From: an uncultured Eubacterium sp.
GTDB lineage: Bacteria > Bacillota > Clostridia > Lachnospirales > Lachnospiraceae
Direction of reading: 5' to 3'
Length of the DNA: 43,102 nt
Assembly (NCBI GenBank): GCA_947089855.1
Contig: CAMUML010000037.1
Coordinates: 1 to 43,102, forward strand
Shown: positions 6,781 through 31,514 of the stretch, piece by piece
How the letters are laid out: the number at the start of each line of letters is the position of its first letter
Position numbering within the stretch: the stretch's first letter is position 1
Program-made: the position numbers and the translations under genes
Notes under the pieces: generated by a model
Databases searched by the model: none
Seen by the model: only the letters and a program-made list of their open reading frames with translations
What the model was told of the DNA's origin: nothing

Positions 6781-6844
6781 GTTACTATTTACAGCCTCAT
6801 AACTTAGAATATTTGTCAAGAGCAAATTGGCTGTGAATAGTAAT
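6781..6844 (+). repeat. 64-bp terminal-inverted-repeat element, copy A
   Basis: Begins GTTACTATTTACAGCC and ends GGCTGTGAATAGTAA followed by T (the other copies have C), giving 16-bp terminal inverted repeats with one internal mismatch. Apart from that last position it is identical to the reverse complement of copy B (23230-23293), and it differs from copy C (31451-31514) at one further base. It contains no coding capacity. The size and ends fit a small MITE-like palindrome. Confidence 0.85.
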
Positions 6845-6897
6845 AAAGAACCAGTTATTTCTTTATTATATATAGATTAGGATGAATCAGGTAAAAT

Positions 6898-7845
6898 ATG
6901 GTTTATATAGTTGCCGCTTTCTATTGGGAAGCACATATGATAATAGAAGCATATGGATTAAAAAAGGTTTTGGAAAGCACGCATTTCCAGCAATTCTATA
7001 GCAAAGAAGCGGGCATGTGCCTGACAATCAGCGGTGCGGGCGAAATTGCAGCTGCGGCTGCCGTCAGCAGCATGTGTACGCAATACCAGCCAGGGGCAGG
7101 TGATATGCTGCTCAATATAGGTATTTGTGCGGGTATGGGCGGCCAGGAAGGGGTATTCGTGGTTCATAAGCTAACAGAGCAGGCGACAGGGAAAACTTTT
7201 TATCCGGATATGCTGTACCGCTGCCCATTCCCGGAAGCAAGCCTGATGACAGGTATGGCCCCGCAAGTAGGCGTGGGGCCGCAGGCTGGGGTATTACAGC
7301 GGAGCAGGGCGCTGGGGGCTGTGGAGCTTCCGGGCAGGCAGGAAGAGGCACAAAGGGCACGTGGATACCGTGGGCTTTATGATATGGAAGCAGCCGCTGT
7401 GTATCAGGCTGGGGCGTATTACTTTGGCCCGCATCAGATGGTATTTATAAAAGTTGTATCAGATAATGGGGGTGCGGATGCAAAAGATATTGCGGGGCAT
7501 CAGGTAGAACAGTTGTTTGCTAAGTATAAAGGAAGTATTTTGGGCCATATCCGCTTTTTGCAGTCAGTACAAAAAAGCCTATATCGGCAGGGGAAGGGGG
7601 ATCTAAGAATCGGGCGCAGCGCGCAGGGGGATAAAAAACAGGAACGGATTCAAGCACTGTGTGCCGATATGCATTGTTCTAAGGCGATGAAGGATGGGCT
7701 TTTGGAGTATATCCGTTATCTGGAATTGGCGGGTATTGATTATGAAGCTGCCATTCAAAGGATGTATGATGAGAAAAAACTGCCCTGTAAAGATAAAAGG
7801 GAAGGGAAAAAGTGTTTTGCGCAGTTAAAAGAATACTTATTGTAA
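6898..7845 (+). CDS. Purine nucleoside phosphorylase / MTA-SAH nucleosidase-like protein
   Basis: A 315-residue protein of the nucleoside phosphorylase-I fold (PNP/UDP family). Seen: an N-terminal VYIVAAFYWEAHMI strand, a central glycine-rich MLLNIGICAGMGG at about residues 70-83, the ligand-binding YDMEAAAVYQAG at about 161-172, and the FIKVVSDNGG segment at about 183-192, whose Asp corresponds to the purine-activating acid of this family. A helical C-terminal extension of about 100 residues follows the catalytic domain and is unusual. It starts a tight three-gene set with an SDR (44-base gap) and a spore photoproduct lyase-like radical SAM protein, so it may clean up 5'-deoxyadenosine or an SAM-derived nucleoside. 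That role is inference. The ribosome binding site is weak (CAGG, 7 bases upstream). Confidence 0.75.
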   Translation: MVYIVAAFYWEAHMIIEAYGLKKVLESTHFQQFYSKEAGMCLTISGAGEIAAAAAVSSMCTQYQPGAGDMLLNIGICAGMGGQEGVFVVHKLTEQATGKTFYPDMLYRCPFPEASLMTGMAPQVGVGPQAGVLQRSRALGAVELPGRQEEAQRARGYRGLYDMEAAAVYQAGAYYFGPHQMVFIKVVSDNGGADAKDIAGHQVEQLFAKYKGSILGHIRFLQSVQKSLYRQGKGDLRIGRSAQGDKKQERIQALCADMHCSKAMKDGLLEYIRYLELAGIDYEAAIQRMYDEKKLPCKDKREGKKCFAQLKEYLL

Positions 7846-7889
7846 AATGATTTGCGGCAGCTACGTGGGTAGGGGAGGTGTGAAACGGT

Positions 7890-8633
7890 ATGGTAAAAAC
7901 TGGGAAGGATAAACAGGCACAAGCCCAGGGGCAAAAAGAAGCAGCTATTATTACAGGAGCATCTTCCGGTATCGGGCTTGCGGTCAGCAAGGCCATCGGC
8001 GCTATGGGCTATGAAGTGTTTGGGGTTGGGCGGGATTTTGCCGGCAATCCGCTGTGGCAGCAGGAGGGGTTCCATCCAGTTGTTTGCGATGTAATGGATA
8101 CGGAAAAACTATGTGCAAGTGCAAGGCAGATTGCTGCGGACTACTGTGTGCGGATTTTGGTCAACAATGCAGGGGTTGGCTATTATGGGCTTCATGAGGA
8201 ATTAAATCCGAAGAAGGTCAAAGAAATGGTGCGTACCAACCTGGAGGCGCCAATGGTTTTGACACAGCAGCTATTGCGCCAGTTAAAAAAACATGCAGGG
8301 TATATTATCAATATTGCATCCGTTACCGCTCATGGGTCCAATCCACATGGATGTGCTTACGGTGCAACCAAAGCCGGGCTGGCCAGCTTTTCACGCAGCC
8401 TTTTCGACGAAGCACGCAAGTATGGGGTGAAAGTAGCAGCTGTTTATCCAGATATGGCGAAAACAAACCTATACCGCAATGCGGATTTTAGAGAAGGCGA
8501 CGAACCGGATGCATATCTGCTTCCAGAAGAAATCGCAGCCGCAGTAACGTTTATTTTAAGCCAAAGGGACGGGATGGTTATCTCAGAGGTTACTGTCAAG
8601 CCGCAGATACACCGGATTAAAAAGCGTAGGTAG
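7890..8633 (+). CDS. Short-chain dehydrogenase/reductase (SDR)
   Basis: A 247-residue NAD(P)-dependent oxidoreductase of the classical SDR family. The cofactor motif TGASSGIG is at about residues 22-29 after a short polar leader, NNAG is at about 92-95, the catalytic Ser region is in INIASVTAHG, and the YGATK catalytic Tyr-Lys pair is at about 153-157. Substrate cannot be predicted. It lies between the phosphorylase-like and SPL-like genes on the same strand with short gaps (44 and 54 bases), so it is likely cotranscribed. A GGGAGG site lies about 11 bases before the ATG, which is long; a nearer non-ATG start is possible but not better supported. Confidence 0.88.
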   Translation: MVKTGKDKQAQAQGQKEAAIITGASSGIGLAVSKAIGAMGYEVFGVGRDFAGNPLWQQEGFHPVVCDVMDTEKLCASARQIAADYCVRILVNNAGVGYYGLHEELNPKKVKEMVRTNLEAPMVLTQQLLRQLKKHAGYIINIASVTAHGSNPHGCAYGATKAGLASFSRSLFDEARKYGVKVAAVYPDMAKTNLYRNADFREGDEPDAYLLPEEIAAAVTFILSQRDGMVISEVTVKPQIHRIKKRR

Positions 8634-8687
8634 CCGTACTGGCCCGCAGGGCAGGTGGATGCCGGCCACAGAAAGGAAATGATATAG

Positions 8688-9722
8688 TTGCAAGACGTAA
8701 CACACGGTTATTTCAATCCATTTTTTTCACATATTTATATAGAGGAACGGGTGTGCGGCCATCCGCGTGCAAAAGCCATCCTTGCAAAATATCCATCTGC
8801 ACAAGTGGTTGAAATTGGCCATTATAAAGATGTTTTTTGCCGAACGAGGCAAAGCCATGCCCTGCAGCAGCGTTCACAGAGCTTAATTTTGGCGGCAAAG
8901 GAAGGGGAGCTGCTTTATAAAGGTGCTCCGGTGTGCCAGGATTTTGGGTATCCATATTTTTATTATACTTCCTGTGTAATGAACTGCGTGTATAACTGTG
9001 CTTACTGTTATTTAAAAGGCATGTACCCTTCTGCGAATATTGTAATATTTGTCAATATTGAAGATATTTTTGGCCGGGTGCAGCAAATATTAAAACGCCA
9101 TCCGTTGTACCTGTGCGTTTCTTATGATACTGACCTGGCGGCCTTGGAACCGGTGGCAGGGTATGCAAGGGAATGGAGCCGGTTTGTAGAAAACCAAGGG
9201 GGAAGATTGACAGTGGAAATACGTACAAAATGTGCAAGTAAGCATTTTTTTGCACCCAAACCCCCCGCGCATGGGGTCATCTATGCTTTTACGTTATCGC
9301 CACAGCCGGCCATAGATGCCTATGAACAATATACGCCATCCCTGCAAGAAAGGGTCCTTTGTGCAGCATGGGCTGTAAAGGCAGGATATGCGGTGCGGCT
9401 ATGTTTTGACCCTATGCTGTATATCCCAGGATGGGAATATGAGTATGGCAGGATGCTCGATATGGTGGCTTCACAGATTCCGATGGAAAAGCTGGTTGAT
9501 GCCAGTATTGGGTCGTTCCGTATCCCGCAGGACTATTTAAAAAGGATGCGCAGGCAGGAACCAGATTGTGCAGCGGTATGGTTCCCGTTCCAAAGGGATC
9601 ATGGAGTTTGCCATTATCCAGATGGTTTGATGGGCCAGATGGAAGGATATTTGTTCCGCAGGCTAAAAGAAAAGATGCCGGAAGAAAAGATTTTTTTATG
9701 GGGTCCTGGGCAACTGGTATGA
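8688..9722 (+). CDS. splB: Spore photoproduct lyase family radical SAM protein
   Basis: A 344-residue protein. SPL repairs the UV thymine dimer called spore photoproduct during germination. The radical SAM cluster motif is seen as C100-VYN-C104-AY-C107 followed by YLKG, which is the SPL-type CxxxCxxCYL. C143, in LYLCVSYDTD, lies where the hydrogen-donating cysteine of characterised SPL (Cys141 in Bacillus) is expected. The chain then shows VEIRTKCAS and FTLSPQ segments typical of SPL. The start codon is TTG, preceded by GAAAGGAAAT. The gene closes the operon that begins at 6898 and is followed by spo0A 396 bases on. Length is close to SPL (about 340). The spacing to C143 is shorter than in Bacillus, so a divergent SPL-like enzyme cannot be excluded. 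Confidence 0.85.
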   Translation: MQDVTHGYFNPFFSHIYIEERVCGHPRAKAILAKYPSAQVVEIGHYKDVFCRTRQSHALQQRSQSLILAAKEGELLYKGAPVCQDFGYPYFYYTSCVMNCVYNCAYCYLKGMYPSANIVIFVNIEDIFGRVQQILKRHPLYLCVSYDTDLAALEPVAGYAREWSRFVENQGGRLTVEIRTKCASKHFFAPKPPAHGVIYAFTLSPQPAIDAYEQYTPSLQERVLCAAWAVKAGYAVRLCFDPMLYIPGWEYEYGRMLDMVASQIPMEKLVDASIGSFRIPQDYLKRMRRQEPDCAAVWFPFQRDHGVCHYPDGLMGQMEGYLFRRLKEKMPEEKIFLWGPGQLV

Positions 9723-10118
9723 AAGATGTCATTTTAATAGTTGCCCGGCTGCATCCAGAAGGCCAGCCGAAACATCTGTATGCAGCGTGCGTGCGGTCTG
9801 TTTTGACTTCGATATGTCCGTGTCCAGGCGGCTATTGCGGCCAGAAAGCCATTTTTTTGTATCTTTCAATTTTCAAACATATTTCTTTTTTTCTTTACAA
9901 ATCCCTATTTATAAACTATTATATTAAGATGATTACTGCTGTCATGTTAAAAACATATAAAACTGGAAAATTCTTGAAAAAGACAGAGTTAGTGACAATA
10001 TTCGACATTTTTCAATGAAATCGTTTCATATGATATTGGAACGGAGGAAATTCGTCTTTTTCACAGGATGCTGTTGATTTTGTGGATTTTCTGCCGATGA
10101 TGACAGGAGGTTAAAGTC
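9723..10118 (+). other. 396-bp intergenic region upstream of spo0A
   Basis: No gene seen. A GC-rich segment ending in a T run at about 9849-9857 may weakly terminate the splB transcript, but its stem is imperfect. The second half is AT-rich and holds the spo0A promoter and a 0A box (9974-10007). The spo0A ribosome site is in GACAGGAGGTTAAAGTC just before 10119. Confidence 0.5.
9974..10007 (+). promoter_or_regulatory. Candidate spo0A promoter with overlapping 0A box
   Basis: TTGAAA (9974-9979), a 16-base spacer and CAATAT (9996-10001) give a plausible sigma-A promoter. TTCGACA at 10001-10007 is the exact reverse complement of the 0A box TGTCGAA and overlaps the downstream edge of the -10, as expected for autoregulation. 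The promoter match is moderate; the 0A box match is exact over 7 bases. Confidence 0.5.
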
Positions 10119-10916
10119 ATGACTCAATTGAATGTGGCGATTGCAGATGATAATGAAAAAATGGTACAGCTTTTAGGAGATATTGTCAAAAGCGATAAAG
10201 AACTTAATGTTGTAGGTACAGCCAAGGATGGCGTAGAAGCCTGTGAGATGATCCGGGCTAAGGAACCAGATGTAGTACTTTTGGACATTGTAATGCCGAA
10301 ACTGGATGGGTTGGGTGTATTGTCAAAAATCAATAATGACCATTCACTGAAAAAACATCCGGCATTTATTATCATCAGTGCCATCGGTCAGGAGAAAATT
10401 ACCGAGGATGCATTTAATCTGGGCGCAGATTATTATATTATGAAACCTTTTGATAACGATATGGTAGTAAATCAAATCAAGCTGATCCGTGACCGTAATA
10501 TGAAAAAGCCGAATGAACAAAAGAAGGCGAATGCATATGAAAAATATCAGGAGCCAGTAGAGCGTGACCTGGAAACCGATGTTACCAATATTATCCATGA
10601 GATTGGGGTACCGGCCCACATTAAGGGGTACCAGTATTTGCGTGTAGCGATTATGATGTCCGTAAACGATATTGAAATGCTCAATTCCATAACAAAAATC
10701 TTGTACCCAACCATTGCCAAGCAGTTCCAAACGACGCCAAGCAGGGTGGAGCGGGCAATCCGGCACGCGATTGAAGTCGCATGGTCAAGGGGAAAAATGG
10801 ATACGATTGACGAATTATTTGGCTATACGATCAACAACGGCAAAGGGAAACCGACAAATTCGGAATTTATTGCATTGATTGCAGATAAAATAAGGTTGGA
10901 ATACCGCGCGAAATAG
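10119..10916 (+). CDS. spo0A: Sporulation transcription factor Spo0A
   Basis: A 265-residue response regulator that, when phosphorylated, starts sporulation by binding 0A boxes. The receiver domain (1-125) shows D10/D11 in IADDNEK, phosphoacceptor D56 in [14 protein letters not shown], Thr/Ser-equivalent in IIISAIGQ and the conserved Lys in YIMKPFD. A linker of about 25 polar residues follows, then the Spo0A-specific DNA-binding domain (about 150-265) with [11 protein letters not shown] and the [17 protein letters not shown] recognition region, which is essentially diagnostic. Ribosome site AGGAGG is well placed. In many Clostridia and Bacilli spoIVB lies immediately upstream; here the upstream gene is splB and the downstream gene is glgA (54 bases away). 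Confidence 0.98.
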
Positions 10917-10970
10917 AGTATAATGTCTTTACAGGCAGTAAATGCCATTATACGTTCCGGAGGTTTTTCA

Positions 10971-12437
10971 ATGAAAAAAGTGTTATTTGTAACATCGGAA
11001 GCGGTGCCTTTTATTAAAACAGGGGGGCTTGCAGATGTAGCCGGTTCCCTGCCGCGCTATTTTGACAAAGCAAAATATGATGTGCGCATTATCCTGCCGA
11101 AATACGTCTGCATGGATGACAGTTTAAAAACACAGATGCGGTTTGATTGCCGGTTTTATGTCAATTTAAGCTGGCGCAGCCAATATGCAGGCGTACTGGA
11201 GTCAAAGGCAGACGGGATTACGTATTATTTTATCGACAATGAATATTATTTTGCCGGGCCGAAGCCCTACAACAATATATACGAAGATGTTGAGAAGTTT
11301 GCTTATTTTTCAAAAGCGGTGCTGGAAGCCCTGCCCAAGATTGGCTTTTGCCCGGATATTATTCATTGCCATGACTGGCAGACTGGGCTGATACCAGTGT
11401 ATTTAAAAAATGAATACGTTAAGGATGCTTTTTACCAGAATATAAAAACGGTCTTTACGATCCATAACCTCCAATTCCAAGGGCGCTGGATTATGCAGGC
11501 TGTCAAGGATATTACTGGGCTGCCAGAGTATTTATTTACGTCGGATAAGCTGGAATCCTATGGGGAAGCAAATTATTTAAAGGGCGGTGTCGTGTATTCT
11601 GATATAATCACAACAGTCAGCAAAACTTATGCCTATGAGATTACAACGCCAGGCAGCGGGGAAGGATTGGATGGCCTGATGAATGCCAGGCGGCAGGATT
11701 TATATGGTATTGTCAATGGGATTGATGATACAGAATACAATCCGAATACGGACCCGTTCCTTGCTTTTCCATTTGGACAGGCAGATATGGTATCACAGAA
11801 ATGTAAAAATAAACTGCATTTACAGCACCAGCTTGGATTTGAGGAAGATGCAGATACCATGATGATCGGTATGGTATCACGGATGACAAACCAAAAGGGC
11901 TTTGATCTGGTGGAAGCGGTGCTGGATGAACTGCTTGCAGAGGCACGTATCCAAATTGTAGTGTTAGGGACTGGCCAGGCGAATTTTGAAAATATGTTCC
12001 GGCATTTTTCTTGGAAATACGAAGACAAATTATCAGCAAATATTTTCTATTCAGAAGAGCTGGCGCATCAGATTTATGCTTCCTGCGATGCGTTCCTGAT
12101 GCCGTCGCTGTTTGAGCCGTGTGGGTTGAGCCAGCTGATCAGTATGCGTTATGGTACGGTTCCGATTGTGCGTGAAACGGGAGGGCTAAAAGATACGGTA
12201 GAAGCATATAACCGTTATGACCAGACAGGGACAGGCTTTAGCTTTTGTAATTACAATGCAAAGGAGATGCTGTCGACCTTGTACTATGCAATGGATATTT
12301 ATTATAATTGCAGGCAGGACTGGAATGCTATCGCGGCCAGAGGGATGCAGTGTGATTTCTCATGGAGCCGTTCCGCTGGTGCATATGAGAAAATTTATGA
12401 CAGTTTCTTTGAAAGCAGCGCATCCGAAAAACAGTAA
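10971..12437 (+). CDS. glgA: Glycogen synthase (ADP-glucose, GT5)
   Basis: A 488-residue glycosyltransferase that extends alpha-1,4-glucan from ADP-glucose in the cytosol. The family's N-terminal KTGGLADVAGSLP block (nucleotide-sugar binding) is at about residues 15-27, and IHCHDWQTGLIPVYL, GIDDTEYNPNTDPF and the C-terminal MPSLFEPCGLSQLISMRYGT with ETGGLKDTV are all present. An upstream in-frame ATG at 10923 exists, but the ATG at 10971 has CCGGAGG 7 bases ahead and gives the normal GlgA N-terminus MKKVLFVTSEAVPF, so I chose it. It follows spo0A by 54 bases without a terminator, so cotranscription is likely. No other glg gene is in the window. Confidence 0.97.
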   Translation: MKKVLFVTSEAVPFIKTGGLADVAGSLPRYFDKAKYDVRIILPKYVCMDDSLKTQMRFDCRFYVNLSWRSQYAGVLESKADGITYYFIDNEYYFAGPKPYNNIYEDVEKFAYFSKAVLEALPKIGFCPDIIHCHDWQTGLIPVYLKNEYVKDAFYQNIKTVFTIHNLQFQGRWIMQAVKDITGLPEYLFTSDKLESYGEANYLKGGVVYSDIITTVSKTYAYEITTPGSGEGLDGLMNARRQDLYGIVNGIDDTEYNPNTDPFLAFPFGQADMVSQKCKNKLHLQHQLGFEEDADTMMIGMVSRMTNQKGFDLVEAVLDELLAEARIQIVVLGTGQANFENMFRHFSWKYEDKLSANIFYSEELAHQIYASCDAFLMPSLFEPCGLSQLISMRYGTVPIVRETGGLKDTVEAYNRYDQTGTGFSFCNYNAKEMLSTLYYAMDIYYNCRQDWNAIAARGMQCDFSWSRSAGAYEKIYDSFFESSASEKQ

Positions 12438-12476
12438 CCTATATATTCGGTGATTGAATACTACACAATAAACCCG

Positions 12477-12530
12477 ATAAACGGCGGGCCAGAAATAAAG
12501 GATATTGCGCTGAAACTTTACGCCGTTTAT
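12477..12530. repeat. Inverted repeat between convergent glgA and DUF5688 gene, possible terminator
   Basis: ATAAACGGCG (12477-12486) pairs exactly with CGCCGTTTAT (12521-12530) across a 34-base loop. There is no clear T run on either strand, so termination is uncertain. It may instead protect transcript ends. Confidence 0.4.
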
Positions 12531-12548
12531 ATAGATCTACGGCAAATG

Positions 12549-13445: not shown

Positions 13446-13806
13446 AGTATTCCTCCATAATATAAACTATATGGGAAATGAAGAAAAAACGGATGCCATA
13501 AGGCAGTTTTCAGGGCAAGCCCGATAGAAAAGGATATACTCTGTAATAAGAAAATGCATGCAGAAGTGCGGTATTGAAATCTGCTTGAAGCTAATGTAAC
13601 ATGTTTTGTAAAATAATGCAAGGGTTTTTGCAAAGAAAATCAGAATAAACCATAATTGGTATTACCTTCCGCCATGGCGTGGAGGTCGGCACAAAGATTT
13701 GAAGGCAGCAGCAGACAGGATAACCGAAAATCTCCGGAACCTGCCCGCTGTATTTGTGTATGGAAATATAGTATGATGCTGGGGTCAAAAGTCCTACCCA
13801 AATCCC
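13446..13806. other. 361-bp intergenic region with a GC-rich unexplained block
   Basis: No gene called. The part next to 13446 is AT-rich and carries the DUF5688 promoter region (for example TTGCAT on the minus strand near 13621). The stretch from about 13655 to 13800 is richer in GC and open in several frames at once, but lacks ribosome sites and recognisable protein content. It sits at the 3' end of the potD transcript. It could be a repeat or RNA known from related genomes; a search would decide. Confidence 0.4.
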
Positions 13807-14859: not shown

Positions 14860-14876
14860 GGCAGGGGCCTCCTTTC

Positions 14877-15671: not shown

Positions 15672-15716
15672 ATTACATTACCTCAGTATTCATGATGATG
15701 GCTGGGGTGGGGCAGG

Positions 15717-19317: not shown

Positions 19318-21893
19318 AAAAGCAGCGCAAAGGTAACGGAAATAAAAAAAATATTTCGTTGCTTCTTTCTATTATATTAGTTTTTAGTATTTTAGGGGCG
19401 GTTGTATTTTCAGTGGCCAATAAAATATCCGCAGAGATGTCTGCGTCAGCCATTCAAAACTTGAGTGAAAGTTTGGATTTAATGAAAGGTACAATAGAAG
19501 CAATTCTAAGGAAGGAAGCGGAATTCCAAAAACTGATGGCGCTGGAAATTGCGCAAGTGGAGGATATGGAGGAATTTATATGTGTTTATAATAGGAACCA
19601 GACGATGGCCAAAATTTCTTTGATCTTGTCTGGGGAGGCGGAAGGCATTTCGGATTCTGGGGAAGTTTTTACAGAAGAAGGCCTGGATTTTTCCGCAGGA
19701 AGGCAGGTAGAAGGGCTGCCAGTTTCAATTTCATATGTAAATTATATGGGGGCTTGGGCATATACGATGAAATGCCCGGTGGTAAAAGACGGCCGGGATG
19801 CGGGGGTTTTGTATATCGAGTATATTTATGAAACCTTGGACGAATCGTTGCCGGATGGGTTTTACAACGGGCGTGCAATGTTGTATATTATGGATTCCGT
19901 CAGCGAACGCCTTGTATTAAATCCGAAAGGGATGGGGGAGCGCAATGCCGGGCATTTAAACCTGGAGGATTTTTACCGGGCAAACCGTATTGAGGAAGAG
20001 GAGCTGCAAGCTGAGGTAAAAAGATGCGTGGAACATGGGGATAATGTTATGTTTTACCATAAGATACAGCAAAAGGATGCCTTGGCTTATATGTGGGCGG
20101 TAAATGAAGGGACGGTTTATCTGATCGGATATGTTCCGGTTGAAGCGGTCCAGCAGGAAGGGAGGACAGTAAACCAGAATATTTTTATCGTTGTGGCTGT
20201 TATGCTGGTGGCTTTTTTCTTATGCTGTGTGTTATATTATTTTAACCAAAGGCAGCAGAACCGTATCAGGCGGGAGCGGGAGGCAGAACGGGAGGTGCAT
20301 AACAAGCGGCTGGCAGAAGCCTTACAGGCAGCACAGGCAGCAAGCAATTCCAAGACTATGTTCCTTTCCAATATGTCGCATGATATACGTACTCCGATGA
20401 ATGCAGTCCTTGGGTTTACGGCGCTGCTTGACAAAGATGCGGAAAATCCGTCAAAAGTGAGGGAATATACAAAAAAAATTACAGCGTCGGGCCAGCACCT
20501 GCTTGGGTTGATCAATGATATTTTGGATATCTCTAAAATTGAAAGCGGGAAAGTTGTGCTTACAGTAGAAGAGTTTACGTTAAGTAACCTAGTATCTTCC
20601 ATCGATGCTATTATACGCCCGATGGCAAAGGCTAAAAAACAGACGTTCCATGTGGAAGCTGCCGGTGTGAAGCATGAGTATTTTATCGGTGATGAGACGC
20701 GTATGAACCAGGTTTTGATCAACCTATTGTCCAATTCTGTAAAATATACGCCGGAAGGCGGCGATATATGGCTACGTATTATGGGGTTAAAACAACGGTC
20801 TAGCCAATATGGGCATATCCGTATCGAAGTGGAGGACAATGGATATGGAATGACGCCGGAATATTTAACAACCGTTTTTGATGCATTTACCCGGGCGGAA
20901 AACAGTACGACAAATAAAGTGCAGGGTACGGGCCTTGGGATGGCTATTACCAAAAACATTGTAGAACTTATGGGCGGGTCGATCGATGTATCCAGCGAGG
21001 TAGGCAAAGGGAGCAAATTCCGAGTGGAATTGGAGCTGCGGATACCGCAGGCGCAGGTAGATAACCAGTTTTGGGAGGCAAATGGCATTTCCAGGATTTT
21101 GCTTGGAAATCAAGATATGCAGGATGCCCAAAATTTGAAGCAATTGATGGAAGGTGTGGGTGTCCAGGTGGATATAGCCCAGGATACACAAGCAATTTTG
21201 CGGATGGCGAAGGATAACGGGGAGCGTTATGGGGCTGTGCTGCTGGAATATGGCGTAGCAGGTACGCAAAGCGCGCATCTGGCAGAAAAAATACGTGCGG
21301 CGTTGCCGGAGGCGGTACCAGTGCTGCTTTTGGCTGACTATGATGCGGAAGGGGTAGAAGAAACACTTGTTATAGCAAATACAGGTGCCCTTTCGAAACC
21401 GTTTTTTGTATCGGCGTTTCAGGAAAAACTGTTGGAGATGCAGGAAGGGCGCCAGGAAGAAGCAGAGGCGGGAACAGAAACAGCAGGGGGCGTGAATCTG
21501 GAAGGGATGCATTTCCTTGCCGCAGAGGATAATGAAATAAATGCTGAAATCCTCTCGGAAATATTAAAAATCGAAGGGGCAAGCTGTGAGGTTGCTGAAA
21601 ATGGCCTGTTGGCGCTGGAACGTTTTCAGGATGCGCCGCAGGGTACGTTTGACGCAATCTTAATGGACGTCCAAATGCCGGTAATGAATGGCTATGATGC
21701 AACAAGGGCAATCCGTGCGCTGGATAGGGAAGACGCGTGTACCATCCCGATTATTGCAATGACAGCGAATGCATTTGCGGAAGATGAAAAAGAAGCATTG
21801 GATGCCGGTATGGATGTCCATTTGGCGAAGCCAATTGATGTGGAACTACTAAAAGAGGTTTTAATAAAATATGTTGAAAGGGATAGGCTATGA
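19314..21893 (+). CDS. Hybrid sensor histidine kinase with two receiver-like domains
   Basis: An 859-residue membrane protein. TM1 (about 14-34) and TM2 (about 289-310) enclose an extracellular sensor of about 250 residues. A coiled coil of arginine/glutamate-rich text (about 315-345) follows, then the HisKA domain with H356 in SHDIRTPMNA, and HATPase with N-box LINLLSNSVKYTP, DNGYGM and GTGLGMAI. A first receiver-like domain (about 591-700) lacks the usual phosphoacceptor, reading VLLEYG at that site. The second (about 731-855) is complete, with EDNEIN, D785 in ILMDVQMPVMNG, MTANAF and LAKPID. There is no output domain. The ATG has GGAG 8 bases upstream. Its stop overlaps the start of a solute-binding lipoprotein gene by four bases, suggesting they form one sensing unit. 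Confidence 0.95.
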   Translation: MKKQRKGNGNKKNISLLLSIILVFSILGAVVFSVANKISAEMSASAIQNLSESLDLMKGTIEAILRKEAEFQKLMALEIAQVEDMEEFICVYNRNQTMAKISLILSGEAEGISDSGEVFTEEGLDFSAGRQVEGLPVSISYVNYMGAWAYTMKCPVVKDGRDAGVLYIEYIYETLDESLPDGFYNGRAMLYIMDSVSERLVLNPKGMGERNAGHLNLEDFYRANRIEEEELQAEVKRCVEHGDNVMFYHKIQQKDALAYMWAVNEGTVYLIGYVPVEAVQQEGRTVNQNIFIVVAVMLVAFFLCCVLYYFNQRQQNRIRREREAEREVHNKRLAEALQAAQAASNSKTMFLSNMSHDIRTPMNAVLGFTALLDKDAENPSKVREYTKKITASGQHLLGLINDILDISKIESGKVVLTVEEFTLSNLVSSIDAIIRPMAKAKKQTFHVEAAGVKHEYFIGDETRMNQVLINLLSNSVKYTPEGGDIWLRIMGLKQRSSQYGHIRIEVEDNGYGMTPEYLTTVFDAFTRAENSTTNKVQGTGLGMAITKNIVELMGGSIDVSSEVGKGSKFRVELELRIPQAQVDNQFWEANGISRILLGNQDMQDAQNLKQLMEGVGVQVDIAQDTQAILRMAKDNGERYGAVLLEYGVAGTQSAHLAEKIRAALPEAVPVLLLADYDAEGVEETLVIANTGALSKPFFVSAFQEKLLEMQEGRQEEAEAGTETAGGVNLEGMHFLAAEDNEINAEILSEILKIEGASCEVAENGLLALERFQDAPQGTFDAILMDVQMPVMNGYDATRAIRALDREDACTIPIIAMTANAFAEDEKEALDAGMDVHLAKPIDVELLKEVLIKYVERDRL

Positions 21894-23227
21894 ATAAGAA
21901 AATGAAAACAGTGGCTGCGGTATGTTTGGCAGGGGTGGCTGCAGTTTTGGCTGCTGGCTGCGGTGCAACAAGTAGGGCCGAATTAGATAAAAACCTAATT
22001 AGTCAAGAGGACAGTATAGAAAAAGTCGTAAATTTATTCGGCCCTATGGAAAAAGTAAATCCAGATGCAGAAAATACTGCAAGAAGTGCATTTGATCTGA
22101 CAATTATCATGGCAGAAGAAGAACTGGGTTTGACGGTAGACTATAGGACTTATACGGCCGATAATTACCAGGAAAAAACGTATGATGATGTTGCATTAGA
22201 GAGGGCGCGTAACCATATGGATGACTTCTACTTATTAAATCCAGATACTATCCAATCCTTGGGTTCGCAAGGGGAACTGATGGACCTGTCGGTGTTAGAA
22301 AGCGCAAATAATTTGAGGGAAGTTGTGAAAACGGCAAATGTTGTGGATGGCAAACTGGTTGCGATACCGCAGGAAGTAGTTGCATATGGTTTGTTTGTGA
22401 ATAAAGATATGTTTGATAAATATCATTTGGAATTGCCGGAAACACCACAAGACCTAATGGACTGCTGCAGAATGTTTAAAGAACATGGAATTGAGACGCC
22501 AATCGGCGCAAACCGCTGGTGGCTGGAGAATTTTGTGTTTGCTATAGCATATGCGGATTTGTACAATGGCGGGGATACACAGGCACAGGTCGACGCACTC
22601 AATAAAGGGGAGCGCAGATACAGCGACTATATGCGCCCTGGTTTTGAATTTTTGCAGGAGTTGATCGACCATGGGTATATTGATGCAAAGGCCGCTTATA
22701 CTTATGAAGCAATTGAAGGGGAAGGCCCGGATTTCTTGGCTCAGAAGACCCCGGTCGTAATGGCGTATTGGGGAGCGGCCAATTCAGAAACGGCTTATGG
22801 AAAACCGGATTTTAACTTGCAGGTTATTGGATTCCCAAGCAGCCTTGGGCCGATGCCTGTGGTCTCCATGACAGGGTATGGCGTCAGTGCGCAGGCAGAG
22901 CATGCCCAAGATACCTTGGATGTTTTGGATATTATCCTTTCAGATGAGGCATTGCAACTGTATTCAGAAAAAAATAAAGTCATTTCACCGTCCAAAAATG
23001 TTGAGGTTGACTGTATCCCGGCATTACAGCCGTTAAATGACAAGATGAAAGAGGATGTGTATGTACTTGGGTCAAATGCTGGCATGGATTTAGAACAGTG
23101 GGGGAACACATGTTTAATTGTCAGGGAACTGATGGCCGGTGCTACGGTAGAGGAATGCATGGAAGAATTTGATAAGCTGCAGGATGAATTGCTGCAAAAA
23201 CAGGATGAAAATTCTAGTAAAAAATAA
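21890..23227 (+). CDS. Extracellular solute-binding lipoprotein (family 1), kinase-coupled
   Basis: A 445-residue lipoprotein. The signal peptide ends in LAAGC with Cys24. The mature part has the family 1 solute-binding fold: DDFYLLNPDTIQ, a hinge strand, VVDGKLVAIPQEVVAYGLFVNKDMFDKY (the usual AVPQ...YGLFVNKD motif), then PIGANRWWLENFVFAIAYADLY and VVMAYWGAAN. It is probably a carbohydrate binder, though the ligand is not predictable. The start overlaps the kinase stop by four bases (ATGA). No permease or ATPase gene is nearby, so it is more likely a sensor partner of the kinase than a transporter component. After the stop comes a repeat region and a new promoter. Confidence 0.9.
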   Translation: MNKKMKTVAAVCLAGVAAVLAAGCGATSRAELDKNLISQEDSIEKVVNLFGPMEKVNPDAENTARSAFDLTIIMAEEELGLTVDYRTYTADNYQEKTYDDVALERARNHMDDFYLLNPDTIQSLGSQGELMDLSVLESANNLREVVKTANVVDGKLVAIPQEVVAYGLFVNKDMFDKYHLELPETPQDLMDCCRMFKEHGIETPIGANRWWLENFVFAIAYADLYNGGDTQAQVDALNKGERRYSDYMRPGFEFLQELIDHGYIDAKAAYTYEAIEGEGPDFLAQKTPVVMAYWGAANSETAYGKPDFNLQVIGFPSSLGPMPVVSMTGYGVSAQAEHAQDTLDVLDIILSDEALQLYSEKNKVISPSKNVEVDCIPALQPLNDKMKEDVYVLGSNAGMDLEQWGNTCLIVRELMAGATVEECMEEFDKLQDELLQKQDENSSKK

Positions 23228-23229
23228 TT

Positions 23230-23293
23230 GTTACTATTCACAGCCAATTTGCTCTTGACAAATATTCTAAGTTATGAGGCTGTAAATAGTAAC
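23230..23293 (-). repeat. 64-bp terminal-inverted-repeat element, copy B
   Basis: Reverse-orientation copy of the 6781-6844 element. GTTACTATTCACAGCC (23230-23245) and GGCTGTAAATAGTAAC (23278-23293) are its ends. It is identical to copy A except for A's last base. It forms the left half of a longer composite. Confidence 0.85.
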
Positions 23294-23403
23294 ATTCGCA
23301 GGCTCATTGAAAGAATTTGCCTTGCAAATTGGAGCCTGCTCACTCCTGAATCAGCTTGGCAGCCACCTGGACAGCGGGGTGTTCAGGTGGCTGTGAATAG
23401 TAA
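23294..23403. repeat. 110-bp right half of the composite element
   Basis: Contains nested and tandem hairpins: GCAGGCTC (23298-23305) with GAGCCTGC (23332-23339), the inner AATTTGC/GCAAATT (23314-23330), and CAGCCACCTG (23360-23369) with CAGGTGGCTG (23384-23393). It ends GGCTGTGAATAGTAA (23389-23403), the same terminus as the 64-bp element. CCTGAATCA at 23345-23353 is the reverse complement of TGATTCAGG at the window's right end. Confidence 0.7.
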
Positions 23404-23433
23404 AAAATAATTCTTAAAAAGAGAAAGATTTTC

Positions 23434-24981: not shown

Positions 24982-25000
24982 CTGGAAAATATGTTACAAT
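24971..25000 (+). promoter_or_regulatory. Candidate promoter for the DUF4358 gene
   Basis: TGGAAA (24971-24976), an 18-base spacer and TACAAT (24995-25000), preceded by TGT as an extended -10. It overlaps the end of the MATE coding region. A second TATAAT at 25071-25076 has no matching -35. Confidence 0.4.
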
Positions 25001-25096
25001 AAAAACAGCGGTTCCCTGTGCCAAGTTCCAGCCAGACAGGAAGCCGGCTGGCAGTGTTCCATTTTGCAAATATAATTTCAGGAGGGTTTACAGATT

Positions 25097-25690: not shown

Positions 25691-25714
25691 TTAACAAATA
25701 GGCAGGGGCAGGGA

Positions 25715-26872: not shown

Positions 26873-26942
26873 CGGGCAAACATCTGCCGCCAACACCAAA
26901 CGATAGGGTATCAATGAAATAAGCAGGCATTTGCTGCATAGA

Positions 26943-27019
26943 TATACTCACGGGCGATGAAGTTTGCCATATGGCTTGAGGCAGTAACTAGAGTTTTGTG
27001 CTGGCTGCCATAACTCTAA
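26943..27019. repeat. Structured repeat, copy 2
   Basis: The first 46 bases (26943-26988) align with 6657-6702 with 35 identities and 11 mismatches, every mismatch being a transition. The downstream sequence differs: TAGAGTT (26989-26995) and AACTCTA (27013-27019) form a different hairpin. It lies in the 199-base gap before the FAD-dependent oxidoreductase gene. Confidence 0.55.
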
Positions 27020-27071
27020 TTTCTGCCCGGATGGAGCACCAGTATAAGTCAGGAAGAAAGGAATATGGTAC

Positions 27072-28499
27072 ATGAAATATGACGTGATCATTGTCGGCGC
27101 AGGCCCGGCAGGGATATTTACGGCAATGGAGTTAATAAAGCATAACAGCAGGAAAAAAATACTGCTGGTAGAAAAAGGCAAGGCGATTGAAGAGCGCAGC
27201 TGCCCGAAAAATAAAACAAAAAAATGCGTAGGCTGCAGCCCATGCAATATTACCACCGGATTTTCCGGGGCAGGGGCATTTTCGGACGGCAAGCTGTCGT
27301 TAAGCTATGAAGTAGGCGGCGATTTCCCGCAGCTGGTCGGTGCAGATTTTGCGCAGGAACTGATCCATTATACGGACCGTATTTATCTGGAGTTTGGCGC
27401 AGATACCCATATCGAAGGGGTAAGTGAGCCGCTAAAAGTCCGTGAGATCCGAAAGCGGGCAATACAGGCTGGGCTAAAGCTTGTCGACTGCCCGATCCGC
27501 CATTTGGGTACGGAAAAGGCACAGCATATTTATGGCGCAATTGAAAAATATCTGGCCGATAAAGGCGTAGATATGCTGTTCGGGTACAGCTGCCAGGATT
27601 TAATCATGGAAGAGGACTGCTGCAAAGGCGTTATCTTGGCAAAAGAAACCTATGGCCGAAAAGATGCTTTGCCTGGCAATGTACAGGAACGCTATGAGGC
27701 CCCGCATGTCGTAGTGGCAGCCGGGAGGCGTGGTGCGGATTGGCTGCAGACGCTGTGTGCAAAATACGACATTGCCCACAAGCCTGGAACTGTAGATATA
27801 GGCGTACGTGTGGAAGTACGCAACGAGATTATGGAGGAAGTTAACCATGTCCTGTATGAATCCAAACTAATCGGATACCCAGGGCCGTTTAAAAATAAAG
27901 TGCGTACCTTTTGCCAGAATCCAGGCGGGTTTGTCAGCCAGGAAAATTACGACAATGGCCTTGCAGTCGTCAATGGGCACTCTTACAAGGATCTAAAATC
28001 CGACAATACCAATCTGGCAATTTTGTGTTCCCACAATTTTACAGAACCATTCAACCAGCCGATTTCCTACGCGCAAAAAGTCGGGGAATTGACAAATATG
28101 CTTGGCGCTGGGCAGATACTGGTACAGCGGTATGGAGATATTTTAGACGGCAAGCGCACCTGGCCAAAAGAGCTGGCGCAGTCCAATGTGCGCCCGACAC
28201 TGCCGGATGCAGTAGCCGGGGACATTACAGCGGCGATGCCGTACCGTGCGATGATGAATATCATTAATTTTATCCAGGCAATGGACCATGTAGTGCCGGG
28301 GTTTGCGAGTACAGAAACGCTTTTGTATTCGCCGGAATTAAAATTTTACAGCAATAAAGTGCGGATGGATGAAAACCTTGTGACCAATGTCAAAGGGCTT
28401 TATTGCCTGGGGGATGCAAGCGGATGGACGAGGGGGCTTATGATGGCGTCGTCTATGGGGGTGCTGATGGGGCGTAAGCTGATGGAGTTTGACCGTTAA
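27072..28499 (+). CDS. NAD(P)/FAD-dependent oxidoreductase (COG2509-type)
   Basis: A 475-residue flavoprotein. The Rossmann motif VGAGPAG is at residues 8-14 with the acidic strand end VEKGKAIEERSCP. Two Cys pairs follow, KKCVGCSPC, in the position typical of this uncharacterised FAD-dependent dehydrogenase family, and GAFSDGKLSLSYEVGG. Later, VDIGVRVEVRNEIM and GWTRGLMMASSMGVLMG, with GDASG, complete the FAD site. Substrate is unknown. The ATG is preceded by AAAGGAATATGG. It appears to be a single-gene unit with a terminator at 28703-28730. Confidence 0.9.
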   Translation: MKYDVIIVGAGPAGIFTAMELIKHNSRKKILLVEKGKAIEERSCPKNKTKKCVGCSPCNITTGFSGAGAFSDGKLSLSYEVGGDFPQLVGADFAQELIHYTDRIYLEFGADTHIEGVSEPLKVREIRKRAIQAGLKLVDCPIRHLGTEKAQHIYGAIEKYLADKGVDMLFGYSCQDLIMEEDCCKGVILAKETYGRKDALPGNVQERYEAPHVVVAAGRRGADWLQTLCAKYDIAHKPGTVDIGVRVEVRNEIMEEVNHVLYESKLIGYPGPFKNKVRTFCQNPGGFVSQENYDNGLAVVNGHSYKDLKSDNTNLAILCSHNFTEPFNQPISYAQKVGELTNMLGAGQILVQRYGDILDGKRTWPKELAQSNVRPTLPDAVAGDITAAMPYRAMMNIINFIQAMDHVVPGFASTETLLYSPELKFYSNKVRMDENLVTNVKGLYCLGDASGWTRGLMMASSMGVLMGRKLMEFDR

Positions 28500-28702
28500 A
28501 TGGGGTGGCTGACCACCCCGCCATCCGGCTGGTTTCCACAAGCTTTACGGACGGTTGCCGTATACGCTGCGGCAAAGCAGCAGGCTGGTGGTTCCGCGGT
28601 TGTCCGAAGTTCTACAAGCCTGGTATAGATGCCTGTTAAATGGCTAATTTTTTTGTTGCGCTTGAGCGTGTTTGAAATTTGTACTATTTGCATGAAAATA
28701 AG

Positions 28703-28730
28703 AAAAGGGCTGTTAACAGGCTCTTTTTTT
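28703..28730 (+). terminator. Terminator of the FAD-dependent oxidoreductase gene
   Basis: AAAAGGGCT and GGCTCTTTT form a short stem with two G-U pairs around a 7-base loop, followed by a run of T. An alternative longer pairing, GGGCTGTT (28707-28714) with AACAGCCC downstream, also exists. Confidence 0.5.
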
Positions 28731-28954
28731 ATGTTCAGAACACCTGGAGCCTAATGAACAGCCCCGCAACAATCTGCAGGGTATTAAAAGGCCAACCCCG
28801 CTTTGCCCGGTATTAATTTGTTGCGCAGCAAAGCTGTGGGCAATCAGCCCGGAGAGATTGAATGCTTGCTGCTTTGCCACAGTGTTCAGTGGAAGTGAAC
28901 TACCCATTGTCTAAAGCCAATACATTATTTCAAAGTAAAGCATGACAAAACCAG

Positions 28955-29192
28955 CCGGAGGATGGGGCGGTGGGCTGGGTTGCAGCGACGTTTGGAAGAA
29001 TGTCTAGAAGCCCTTAGTATTCTGCAAGGAAACCAGGCGGCGAAGCCGAAGCGGCGCCTGTAGCTGCTGGCGTAAGCCAGGGCGGACAAGGTGCCGCGCC
29101 CGTCCGGTACCACTGTGTAAATGCAGAATACTTAGTGCTTCTTAACATTCTGGAATAGGAGCCGCAACCCAGCCCACCGCCCCATCCTCCGG
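28955..29192. repeat. 238-bp structured palindrome upstream of the topoisomerase operon
   Basis: The outer arms, 28955-28983 and 29164-29192, are perfectly complementary over 29 bp. An inner stem pairs 29006-29026 with 29122-29142 (21 bp, 2 mismatches), and AGAATGT (28997-29003) with ACATTCT (29145-29151) joins them. The core (29027-29121) is GC-rich and holds small hairpins, including CTGGC-GTAA-GCCAG with a GNRA loop. It could be a structured RNA or a large non-autonomous element. No promoter directly ahead of it was recognised. Confidence 0.65.
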
Positions 29193-29240
29193 CGTCCCCC
29201 ATCCAAATTGCAATCCGCGAATAAACGTTCGAAAAAATTC

Positions 29241-29270
29241 TTTACATATTTTAGGAAAATGTGATATACT
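29241..29270 (+). promoter_or_regulatory. Promoter of the topoisomerase-dut-thyX operon
   Basis: TTTACA (29241-29246), an 18-base spacer and TATACT (29265-29270). The first likely transcribed base is near 29278. Confidence 0.75.
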
Positions 29271-29277
29271 ATAGCGT

Positions 29278-29362
29278 GATTCCATTTGTAAAGCCATATA
29301 AGCTACCGCCCATCCCGCCAAACCGGCTGTACAGCGGTACTTACAAAGCTAAAAATGGAATC
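29278..29362 (+). promoter_or_regulatory. Long stem in the topoisomerase leader
   Basis: GATTCCATTT (29278-29287) pairs exactly with AAATGGAATC (29353-29362). An offset alternative, TTTGTAA (29285-29291) with TTACAAA (29341-29347), shares part of the left arm. The 5' arm starts at the predicted transcription start, so the stem would sit at the very 5' end of the mRNA. The remaining leader to 29519 is GC-rich. Confidence 0.4.
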
Positions 29363-29519
29363 CCCAGCCAGCCATCCACAGCAGGCCGTAGGGCATTCCA
29401 GCCAGTACAGGCAGCAGCCGGTGCCAATATGCCGGCCTTAAGGCAGCAGCCCTGTCCGCCTGGGCGGTTGCCTACGCTGCACCGGAGGCTGGCTTACAGG
29501 AATAAAGGGGTATTGTAAA

Positions 29520-31442
29520 ATGGCAAAGAATCAAGTATACGATGAGGGCAGCATTTCGATCTTAGAAGGGCTGGAGGCTGTCCGAAAAAGGCCGGGCATG
29601 TATATTGGAAGTGTTTCCAGAAAAGGGCTGAACCATTTAATATACGAAATTGTAGATAATTCGGTTGACGAACATTTGGCCGGGGAATGTGATACGATAT
29701 GGGTAACGCTGGAAAAGGACGGTTCCTGTACGGTGGAAGACAATGGGCGCGGCATTCCAGTCGGTATGCATCAAAAGGGTATACCAGCGGCGCGCGTCGT
29801 ATTTTCTACCCTCCATGCAGGGGGGAAGTTTGACAGCACGGTTTATAAGACCAGCGGCGGCCTGCATGGCGTCGGTTCTTCGGTTGTAAATGCGTTGTCC
29901 GTGTACCTGGATGTGGAAATCAGCAGGGACGGGTACATCCACCATGACCGCTATGAACGCGGCAATCCGGTGGTTGCGTTAGAGCAGGGCTTGTTGCCGA
30001 AGGTGGGAAAAACCAAAAAGACTGGTACAAAAATTAATTTCCTGCCAGACCCAGAGATTTTTGAAAAGACACGGTTTAAAGAGGATGAGGTCAAAAGCAG
30101 GATGCATGAGACGGCCTATTTAAATCCGGCGCTTACTATTATCTATGAAGACCGGCGTGGGGAAACCGTTGAACATCTAGAGTACAGGGAGCCGGACGGT
30201 ATTATCGGGTTTGTCAAAGATATTAACCGCAACAACGAGACGATCCATGATGTCGTATATTTGAATGGGGAATCTGACGGCATTACGGTAGAAGCGGCGT
30301 TCCAGTATACCAATGAATTCCATGAAAATATTTTGGGGTTCTGCAATAATATTTACAATGCCGAAGGCGGTACGCATATTACAGGGTTTAAAACTATATT
30401 TACGACAATTATAAACCAGTATGCGCGGGAACTTGGGGTATTAAAGGAAAAGGACGCTAATTTTACCGGGACAGATGTGCGCAACGGCATGACGGCAGTC
30501 GTTTCGATCAAACACCCGGACCCGCGTTTTGAAGGGCAGACCAAGACCAAACTGGACAACCAGGATGCGTCGCGTGCAGTTGCAAAAATTGCCAGCGAAG
30601 AAATACAGCTTTATTTTGATAAAAACCTGGAATCTTTAAAAGCGGTGATCAGCTGTGCGGAAAAGGCGGCCAAGATCCGCAAAACGGAAGAAAAGGCGAA
30701 GACGAACCTTTTGGCAAAGCAGAAGTTTTCTTTTGATTCCAATGGGAAGCTGGCGAACTGCGAGTCAAGGGACGCGGACAAATGCGAGATTTTTATTGTC
30801 GAAGGGGATTCTGCGGGAGGCTCTGCCAAAATGGCAAGGAACCGTATGTACCAGGCCATTATGCCAATCCGCGGCAAGATCTTGAATGTAGAGAAGGCAA
30901 GTATTGACAAGGTACTTGCGAATGCGGAGATTAAGACGATGATCAACGCATTTGGCTGCGGGTTTTCGGAAGGTTATGGAAATGATTTTGACATTGGCAG
31001 GCTGCGTTATGGGAAGATTATTATTATGGCGGATGCCGATGTGGACGGCGCGCATATTTCAACGTTGTTGTTAACACTGTTTTACCGGTTTATGCCGGAA
31101 CTGATCTTTGAGGGGCATGTGTATATTGCAATGCCGCCATTGTATAAGGCGATGCCAAATAAAGGCCCAGAAGAATACCTTTATGATGACGAAGCGCTGA
31201 AAAAGTACCGGAAAAGGCACAAAGGGCCGTTTACGTTGCAGCGGTACAAAGGGCTTGGGGAAATGGATGCGCAGCAGTTGTGGGAAACGACGCTAAACCC
31301 CGAAACACGCATGCTAAAAAAGGTTGAGATCGAAGACGGGCGTATGGCATCCGATGTGACGGAAATGCTGATGGGCAATGACGTGCCGCCAAGGCGGGCA
31401 TTTATTTATAAACATGCGAAGGATGCACAGCTTGATATATAG
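29520..31442 (+). CDS. parE: Type IIA topoisomerase subunit B (ParE/GyrB-like)
   Basis: A 640-residue ATPase subunit. GHKL motifs are EIVDNSVDE, VEDNGRGIPV and TSGGLHGVGSSVVNALS (about residues 40-120). The transducer domain follows, then the TOPRIM domain with IVEGDSAGGSA (about 428-438) and MADADVDGAHIS (about 502-513), and the C-terminal LQRYKGLGEMDAQQLWETT with PPRRAFIYKHA. It heads a long plus-strand gene set. I call it ParE-like because its partner lacks a GyrA box, but GyrB and ParE are hard to separate from one sequence. An AAGGGG site lies 8 bases before the ATG. Confidence 0.85.
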   Translation: MAKNQVYDEGSISILEGLEAVRKRPGMYIGSVSRKGLNHLIYEIVDNSVDEHLAGECDTIWVTLEKDGSCTVEDNGRGIPVGMHQKGIPAARVVFSTLHAGGKFDSTVYKTSGGLHGVGSSVVNALSVYLDVEISRDGYIHHDRYERGNPVVALEQGLLPKVGKTKKTGTKINFLPDPEIFEKTRFKEDEVKSRMHETAYLNPALTIIYEDRRGETVEHLEYREPDGIIGFVKDINRNNETIHDVVYLNGESDGITVEAAFQYTNEFHENILGFCNNIYNAEGGTHITGFKTIFTTIINQYARELGVLKEKDANFTGTDVRNGMTAVVSIKHPDPRFEGQTKTKLDNQDASRAVAKIASEEIQLYFDKNLESLKAVISCAEKAAKIRKTEEKAKTNLLAKQKFSFDSNGKLANCESRDADKCEIFIVEGDSAGGSAKMARNRMYQAIMPIRGKILNVEKASIDKVLANAEIKTMINAFGCGFSEGYGNDFDIGRLRYGKIIIMADADVDGAHISTLLLTLFYRFMPELIFEGHVYIAMPPLYKAMPNKGPEEYLYDDEALKKYRKRHKGPFTLQRYKGLGEMDAQQLWETTLNPETRMLKKVEIEDGRMASDVTEMLMGNDVPPRRAFIYKHAKDAQLDI

Positions 31443-31450
31443 CCCAGATG

Positions 31451-31514
31451 GTTACTATTTACAGCCTCATAACTTAGAATGTTTGTCAAGAGCAAATTGG
31501 CTGTGAATAGTAAC
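31451..31514 (+). repeat. 64-bp terminal-inverted-repeat element, copy C
   Basis: GTTACTATTTACAGCC (31451-31466) to GGCTGTGAATAGTAAC (31499-31514), with one extra complementary G/C pair outside. It differs from copy B at one base. It lies in the 162-base gap between subunit B and subunit A, so the RNA hairpin would be inside the operon's mRNA. Confidence 0.85.

What the first reader, a model, noticed from the sequence alone, without database searches (positions are those of the whole stretch)
6781..31514. Three near-identical 64-bp palindromic elements with 16-bp terminal inverted repeats
Copies at 6781-6844, 23230-23293 (reverse) and 31451-31514 match over 64 bp. A and B differ only at A's last base, and C differs from B at one base. 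The ends are GTTACTATT(T/C)ACAGCC. This much identity between three unrelated intergenic sites points to recent spread, like a MITE or REP element moved by a transposase encoded elsewhere. The internal sequence is also conserved, so it may have its own function.
Basis: seen in the sequence. Interest (0 to 1): 0.7.

Follow-up and report, generated by a model that had tools for sequence, protein, structure and literature searches.

The report
Structured mobile mini-elements in gut bacterium
The three 64-base repeats are recently inserted copies of short, non-coding jumping DNA elements that belong to a wider group in gut Lachnospiraceae whose folded shape is conserved although the sequence of its stems changes; the enzyme that moves them was not found.

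Summary
The 64-bp repeats are at the stated places, and each window insertion is flanked by an 8-bp target duplication (7/8, 8/8, 7/8 letters). Copy B is only the end module of a 175-bp element (23230-23404). Two more relatives lie in the window: 136 bp at 40001-40136 and a truncated 144-bp type at 43042-43102. The genome has 247 matches to the terminal repeat (reversed-pattern control: 1). Insertions avoid genes, and 12 of 12 same-genus species lack copy C at the parE-parC-like junction. So these are MITEs that spread recently. In scattered other Lachnospiraceae, full-length relatives (about 195 bp) share the ends and a three-hairpin interior with strong compensatory change, so they look like a structured clan rather than debris of one insertion sequence. 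No partner transposase was found. IS1634 was tested and rejected; searches for IS66, IS256, ISL3 and ISLre2 gave no intact gene in this genome. A second mini-element family (9-bp duplication) sits at one exact position inside the ends of the first family in 7 complete cases. Call: new variant of a known kind. The transposase, and any RNA role, remain open.

The parts
6781..6844 (+). 64-bp MITE, copy A; 53 bases lie between it and the start of ORF 6898-7845
6773..6780 (.). left target duplication of A (aaagaatc; right copy aaagaacc at 6845-6852, 7 of 8)
23230..23404 (-).
23222..23229 (.). left target duplication of the 175-bp element (aaataatt; right copy 23405-23412, 8 of 8); covers the stop codon of ORF 21890-23227
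31451..31514 (+). 64-bp MITE, copy C, between a parE-like (29520-31442) and a parC-like (31566-33890) ORF (names from reading the translations, not from a call)
31443..31450 (.). left target duplication of C (cccagatg; right copy cctagatg at 31515-31522, 7 of 8)
40001..40136 (.). 136-bp relative with ends GTAACAGTTCAG and, by eye, the same module order; flanked by AGTATAGG at 39993-40000 and 40137-40144 (8 of 8)
43042..43102 (+). left part of a 144-bp relative (GTTACTATTCACGGG end) cut by the end of the contig

Best explanation
The repeats are MITEs: non-coding elements with 16-bp terminal inverted repeats that insert, mostly between genes, with an 8-bp target duplication (shown). The pattern implies movement in trans by a DDE transposase that recognises GTTACTATTCAC-type ends (inferred; enzyme not found). 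The elements are modular: an outer left end, a hairpin, a linker, a second hairpin and a palindromic end module that itself begins with GTTACT. A transposase could therefore use either the outer or the inner left end, giving 144-175 bp or 64-bp units; units of 64, 144 and 175 bp all carry their own target duplications in this genome (shown; the choice-of-end mechanism is inferred). Relatives in other Lachnospiraceae genera keep the fold by compensatory changes, so the folded form is probably selected, either as DNA during transposition or as RNA in the transcripts it lands in (inferred).
For: 8-bp duplications: 32 of 82 candidate end pairs are exact at 8 bp, 0 at 4-7 and 10-12 bp, 2 at 9 bp, 2 at 3 bp; at least 7 of 8 letters in 39 of 82 against 145 of 16,400 mispaired flanks (82 of the 93 pairs had an expected length, and they include inner ends that are not element ends). 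Copy number: 247 end matches, control 1. Empty site: 12 of 12 same-genus species. Gene avoidance: 7 of 53 insertions in a mechanical ORF of 200 aa or more against 778 of 1060 random points. Fold: 38 of 64 pairs change on both sides, covariation 0.477 against 0.199 in shuffles, 0 of 500 as high, slid versions 0.09-0.13.
Against: No transposase with matching ends was found in about 0.65 Mb of this genome read directly (each covered part of it), nor near the unpaired end matches fetched from nine other genomes (a few of these lie at contig ends). A and C have one mismatch in the duplication. The own-genome types match the cross-genus model only weakly (26-49 bits, against 63-149 for longer relatives that were not in the model), and palindromic ends alone give up to about 31 bits on either strand, so kinship of the own types rests mainly on ends and module order. 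No orientation bias relative to transcription (8 same, 10 opposite), which does not help an RNA role.
Confidence: 0.88

Rival explanations
1. REP-type palindromes moved by a RAYT (tyrosine/HUH) transposase.
For: Short intergenic palindromes in high copy number; REPs are described as such in the abstract of PMC3733652.
Against: Exact 8-bp target duplications; 64-200 bp units with 16-bp terminal repeats rather than 20-40 bp hairpins. RAYT genes were not searched for.
Confidence: 0.03
2. The partner is an IS1634-family element: the 575-aa transposase at G000:C82 lies beside an exact terminal repeat.
For: Exact GTTACTATTCACGGGC about 230 bp upstream of the gene, in both tandem copies; NCBIfam IS1634 hit, 362 bits.
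Against: In the 80 related loci kept (of 158) no terminal repeat within 3 mismatches lies at the IS boundaries; 7 loci have a stray site elsewhere, the closest in L240 with 1 mismatch about 600 bp outside. Many of these loci are cut near one end. Four copies in one named genome fix the boundaries about 136 bp upstream and 99-104 bp downstream, with other end sequences. In C82 the IS appears to sit inside such an element.
Confidence: 0.02
3. The partner is an IS66-type element: 8-bp duplications and ends starting GTAA (both recalled for IS66) resemble the 136-bp member's GTAACAGTTCAG.
For: 8-bp duplications; GTAA start of the 136-bp member; degraded IS66 pieces in the own genome.
Against: No fitting end beside the IS66 pieces read: only weak sites (4 mismatches to the 16-bp end, wrongly placed or oriented) were seen; IS66 in only 2 of 8 other genomes; the intact gene in G206 lies between inverted repeats starting AGTAAGCGTC.
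Confidence: 0.12
4. The elements are resident structured RNA regulators or terminators fixed at functional sites, not mobile DNA.
For: Conserved fold across genera; GU cells exceed AC cells 17 to 5 outside the terminal repeat on one strand; several copies close to gene ends and starts.
Against: Target duplications, empty sites and near-identical copies at unrelated sites; no Rfam match at gathering score over an element; no orientation bias.
Confidence: 0.05

Closest known systems
bcr1-bcr3 repeats of the Bacillus cereus group
   Same: High-copy intergenic MITE-like elements (the 18 bcr families range from 100 to 400 bp), often part of UTRs or of intergenic regions in operons (passages of PMC3446304 and PMC6542083); a conserved RNA fold of bcr1 is recalled.
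   Different: [quoted passage not shown] described as restricted to the B. cereus group. No sequence comparison was made here.
Bacterial MITEs such as MITEAba12 of Acinetobacter
   Same: A short nonautonomous IS-derived element in a bacterium (search listing and start of the abstract only).
   Different: No partner IS found here; the interior fold is conserved between genera, which is not expected of a simple internal deletion of one IS.
BOX, RUP, ERIC and Correia elements (recalled)
   Same: Modular or palindromic intergenic repeats that can sit in transcripts.
   Different: Other ends, duplications and hosts; recalled, not compared.
Insertion sequences that target repeats such as REPs (recalled)
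   Same: A second element uses a repeated palindromic element as its target.
   Different: Here a family with 9-bp duplication (a weak IS4-type gene match in one copy) lies at one exact position inside the ends of another MITE family.

Membership tests
MITE | terminal inverted repeats | tested here: met
   16-bp ends
MITE | target site duplication | tested here: met
   8 bp
MITE | short and non-coding | tested here: met
   units of 64, 136, 144 and 175 bp
MITE | multiple dispersed copies and empty sites | tested here: met
   (empty site tested for copy C only)
MITE | partner transposon with matching ends | tested here: inconclusive
   not found; the assembly is 89.7% complete and only five Pfam transposase families were searched
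REP/RAYT | no target duplication (recalled) | tested here: not met
   8-bp duplications
REP/RAYT | RAYT gene in the genome | not tested
IS1634 derivative | ends shared with IS1634 | tested here: not met
IS66 derivative | ends shared with a resident IS66 | tested here: inconclusive
   only degraded own copies and no fitting ends
Rfam RNA family | match at gathering score over the element | tested here: not met
   window (only a tRNA); 8 loci at E up to 1: over an element only a microRNA model far below its cut-off (L106, E 0.09)

The most novel reading that the evidence does not exclude
A Lachnospiraceae-wide clan of 'structured MITEs' whose three-hairpin fold is selected at the RNA level (or needed as folded DNA for transposition), keeps moving without any element-encoded enzyme, and is itself the preferred landing pad of a second mini-element that inserts at one base position inside its ends: a two-tier parasite system.
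Probability: 0.3. Interest if true: 0.7.

Novelty: new variant of a known kind. Interest (0 to 1): 0.47.

Why it matters
MITEs are usually read as debris of one insertion sequence. Here related elements from seven genera and a proviral contig keep the fold while the stem sequences change, which debris should not do. That makes two things testable: whether the fold matters for movement or for host transcripts, and which transposase serves such elements. The copies also lie at several contig ends of this assembly, the window's own end included, and put hairpins into gene junctions such as the parE-parC-like one.

Tried and rejected
Partner search. IS66 (PF03050): own genome has degraded pieces only; in their loci one site with 4 mismatches to the 16-bp end, wrongly oriented; 2 of 8 other genomes have it. 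DDE_Tnp_1 (PF01609): 4 of 6 genomes, own included; gave the IS1634 lead, rejected. IS256 (PF00872): 3 of 6, not the own. ISL3 (PF01610): 2 of 8, not the own. ISLre2 (PF06782): 2 of 8, not the own. Thirteen ORFs beside end matches in other genomes were scanned with Pfam: none is a transposase, two have no family. Long pairs of ends in 402 kb of own contigs (330-6000 bp apart, at least 6 of 8 duplication letters): one 387-bp unit, a nested MITE. A 2.1-kb pair in C81 is two unrelated ends on either side of an ORF that reads by eye as a translation factor.

Viral and phage collections. The exact 16-bp end occurs in 11 viral stretches: L130 and L133 hold true elements, L127, L128 and L132 have single ends near contig edges, the rest look like chance. 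Plasmids: no match for two queries. Phages: no match for L146; four gut phage records match 37-42% of the 175-bp element at 79-82%. I read three of them; two (L323, L324) have both ends, GTTACAGTTCAC-type, 144 bp long, with exact 9-bp duplications. A viral scan for that variant gave 15 stretches that I did not examine.

In print: 0 papers hold the exact 16-mer; the searches listed nothing that I recognised as these elements. I saw listings and abstract starts, passages of PMC3446304 and PMC6542083 and the outline with abstract of PMC3733652. Only open-licence PMC papers are covered.

Also: no orientation bias to transcription. One of the 8 'internal side' rows (L071) is a chance match misfiled by my pattern, so I count 7. 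My notebook says 'eight genera' for alignment A1; the recount is seven plus a proviral contig.
Full report
WHAT IS THERE. Each insertion is flanked by a direct duplication of 8 bp, but for copy B the duplication lies around a longer unit: 23230-23404, 175 bp, of which the 64 bp are one end. The duplications are aaagaatc/aaagaacc for A, aaataatt/aaataatt for the 175-bp unit and cccagatg/cctagatg for C. Two further relatives lie in the window: 136 bp at 40001-40136 with ends GTAACAGTTCAG and duplication AGTATAGG, and the left part of a 144-bp type at 43042-43102, cut by the contig end.

COPY NUMBER AND TYPES. In the own genome (4.08 Mb, 101 contigs, 89.7% complete) the 16-bp end has 247 matches with up to 1 mismatch; the reversed control pattern has 1 (only part of the places are listed). 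Stretches around listed places show 64-, 175- and 144-bp types, plus nested forms. Of 93 pairs of ends less than 340 bp apart, 82 had an expected length. Of these 32 have an exact 8-bp duplication; lengths 4-7 and 10-12 give none, 9 gives 2 and 3 gives 2. At least 7 of 8 letters agree in 39 of 82, against 145 of 16,400 mispaired flanks. The 82 include inner ends of 175-bp units, which are not element ends. In a wider set without repeats of the same site, 53 elements have at least 7 of 8 letters: 22 of 175 bp, 10 of 144 bp, 7 of 64 bp and 14 of other lengths. So the 64-bp unit moves on its own as well as inside the 175-bp unit.

SITES. 7 of these 53 lie in a mechanical ORF of at least 200 aa, against 778 of 1060 random points in the same stretches. 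With non-overlapping ORFs of at least 120 aa, 9 of 53 are inside, 23 between genes in tandem, 15 divergent, 2 convergent and 4 undecided at an edge; of 530 random points 432 are inside, 47 tandem, 12 divergent, 6 convergent and 33 at an edge. The ORFs are mechanical, not curated. In the window A lies 53 bases upstream of ORF 6898, the 175-bp unit starts 2 bases after the stop of ORF 21890-23227, and C lies in a parE-parC-like junction (names from reading the translations).

EMPTY SITE. The parE-parC-like region was found in 13 of 13 genomes of the genus. In the 12 others the intervening stretch is 16 to 594 bases and holds no such element. A search for the ends with up to 3 mismatches gives one lone site in each of the two longest stretches and none in the other ten. 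Sites A and B were not tested. With the 64-mer, 3 of 60 other genomes have a match, all among the 12 same-genus ones.

THE CLAN. The exact end GTTACTATTCACRGSC occurs in 17 of 200 family genomes, own included; the reversed control occurs once, in one other genome. Single matches may be chance. In the loci read from other genomes, 24 distinct paired elements of 97-297 bp were found, 15 of them with at least 7 of 8 duplication letters. Several unpaired ends are truncated elements (by eye). Ten full-length elements from seven genera and one proviral contig (L130) align over 215 columns with few gaps. They share the ends, a first hairpin with a conserved cap, a small middle hairpin and a second long hairpin. 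38 of 64 predicted pairs have a change on both sides; standard pairs fill 89.4% of cells against 73.6% in shuffles; the covariation score is 0.477 against 0.199, with 0 of 500 shuffles as high; sliding the partner by 1-3 columns gives 0.09-0.13. The structure was predicted from the same alignment, which favours it over the slid versions, and related sequences can exceed shuffles without structure. Arms of a DNA hairpin can also be made alike by template switching (recalled), so covariation alone does not prove an RNA. On an alignment of 15 elements, the pairs predicted on both strands and outside the terminal repeat have 17 GU against 5 AC cells (binomial 0.008, cells not independent); inside the terminal repeat 2 against 5. 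This hints at RNA-level selection on one strand. Against it, 18 own elements between tandem genes show no orientation bias (8 same, 10 opposite).

A covariance model of the ten finds longer relatives that were not in it: 149 down to 77 bits in genomes that mostly also gave model sequences, 72 bits in another genus of the family and 63 bits in another family of the class. Truncated ones score less. The own 175-bp types score about 40-49 bits, the 64-bp copies of the window 36-43 and the 144-bp types about 26-32; 36-bp units alone reach 28-31 bits, on both strands. So the own types are relatives by ends and module order rather than by close sequence. In a draw of 245 genomes of the class, 3 have a match: the own genome, one of the same family, one of another family (stricter filters that lose weak matches). 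Rfam gives only a tRNA in the window at gathering score; in 8 loci at E up to 1 the only match over an element is a microRNA model far below its cut-off.

MODULES. The 175-bp and 144-bp own types read: outer end, short hairpin, linker with TGATTCAGGAGTGAG, second hairpin, then a palindromic module that begins again with GTTACT and ends with the outer right end. The module is 64 bp in the 175-bp type and 36 bp in the 144-bp type. In G147 a 36-bp version also appears alone (its duplications were not tested). The simplest reading is that the transposase can use the inner or the outer left end. This is inference.

THE MISSING ENZYME. Five transposase families were sought in the own genome and in five to eight others. 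One lead appeared: an IS1634-family gene beside an exact terminal repeat. I rejected it. In the 80 related loci kept (of 158 found) no end within 3 mismatches lies at the IS boundary; 7 loci have a stray site elsewhere. Four copies in one named genome (Parablautia sp. Marseille-Q6255) fix the boundary about 136 bp upstream and 99-104 bp downstream of the gene. In C82 the IS appears to sit inside such an element, and a stretch of period 2136 is repeated (1759 of 1800 positions), either a real tandem or an assembly artefact. No long pair of ends was found in 402 kb of own contigs other than a nested 387-bp unit. The genome is incomplete, several transposase families were not sought, and most of the genome was not read directly.

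A SECOND TIER. A family with ends CAATGTCATT(T/A)A(C/G)TTA(A/G)G sits inside the ends of the first family, between GTTACT and the rest. Of 24 distinct ends in the own-genome loci, 10 abut GTTACT-ATTCACRGS, 7 abut the second copy of the nine bases and 7 lie elsewhere (one row refiled by eye). That makes 7 complete insertions, six of 113 bp and one of 1001 bp, all at the same position; the nine-base duplication is exact in 6 and has 8 of 9 letters in the seventh. Most loci were fetched by the first family's ends, which biases this count. In the contigs, taken without regard to the ends, the 5 complete copies are all in such ends, and 4 further single ends lie elsewhere. The 1001-bp copy (L189) carries a broken gene with a weak IS4-type match (32 bits, cut-off 115).

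VERDICT. An ordinary kind (MITE) in an unusual form: modular, structured, spread across genera, and used as a target by a second family. The partner enzyme and the meaning of the fold are open.

Noticed in passing
6657-6749: A 93-bp element TATACTCACGAGCG...CAGTATA that looks like a TA-target (IS630-like, recalled) MITE, with relatives in 14 own-genome loci; similar elements sit inside 64-bp copies in L056 and L064 at the same TA.
   Followed up: partly
L172 362-474; L189 1359-2359; L367 10296-10408; L371 4761-4873 and 5005-5117; L374 3034-3146 and 6101-6213: A second MITE/IS family inserted at one exact position inside the ends of the first family with a 9-bp duplication.
   Followed up: partly
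L194 (G000:C82) 1-4400: IS1634-family gene in a repeat of period 2136 that includes part of a MITE and about 70 bp of flank; long target duplication or assembly artefact.
   Followed up: partly
28935-29197: A palindromic repeat of about 260 bp (33-bp arms at 28954-28986 and 29161-29193) with 85-88% matches in 3 own-genome loci.
   Followed up: no
12434-12534 and 1-62: Further repeats shared with other contigs of the genome (96% to 1 locus; 97-100% to the ends of 3 contigs).
   Followed up: no
L323 3894-4037 and L324 125-268 (gut phage records MT839507, MT836555): 144-bp relatives with GTTACAGTTCAC-type ends in gut phage sequence, flanked by exact 9-bp instead of 8-bp duplications.
   Followed up: partly
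L135 495-791: A 297-bp relative in which the first hairpin looks elongated by tandem repetition of its own stem (by eye).
   Followed up: no
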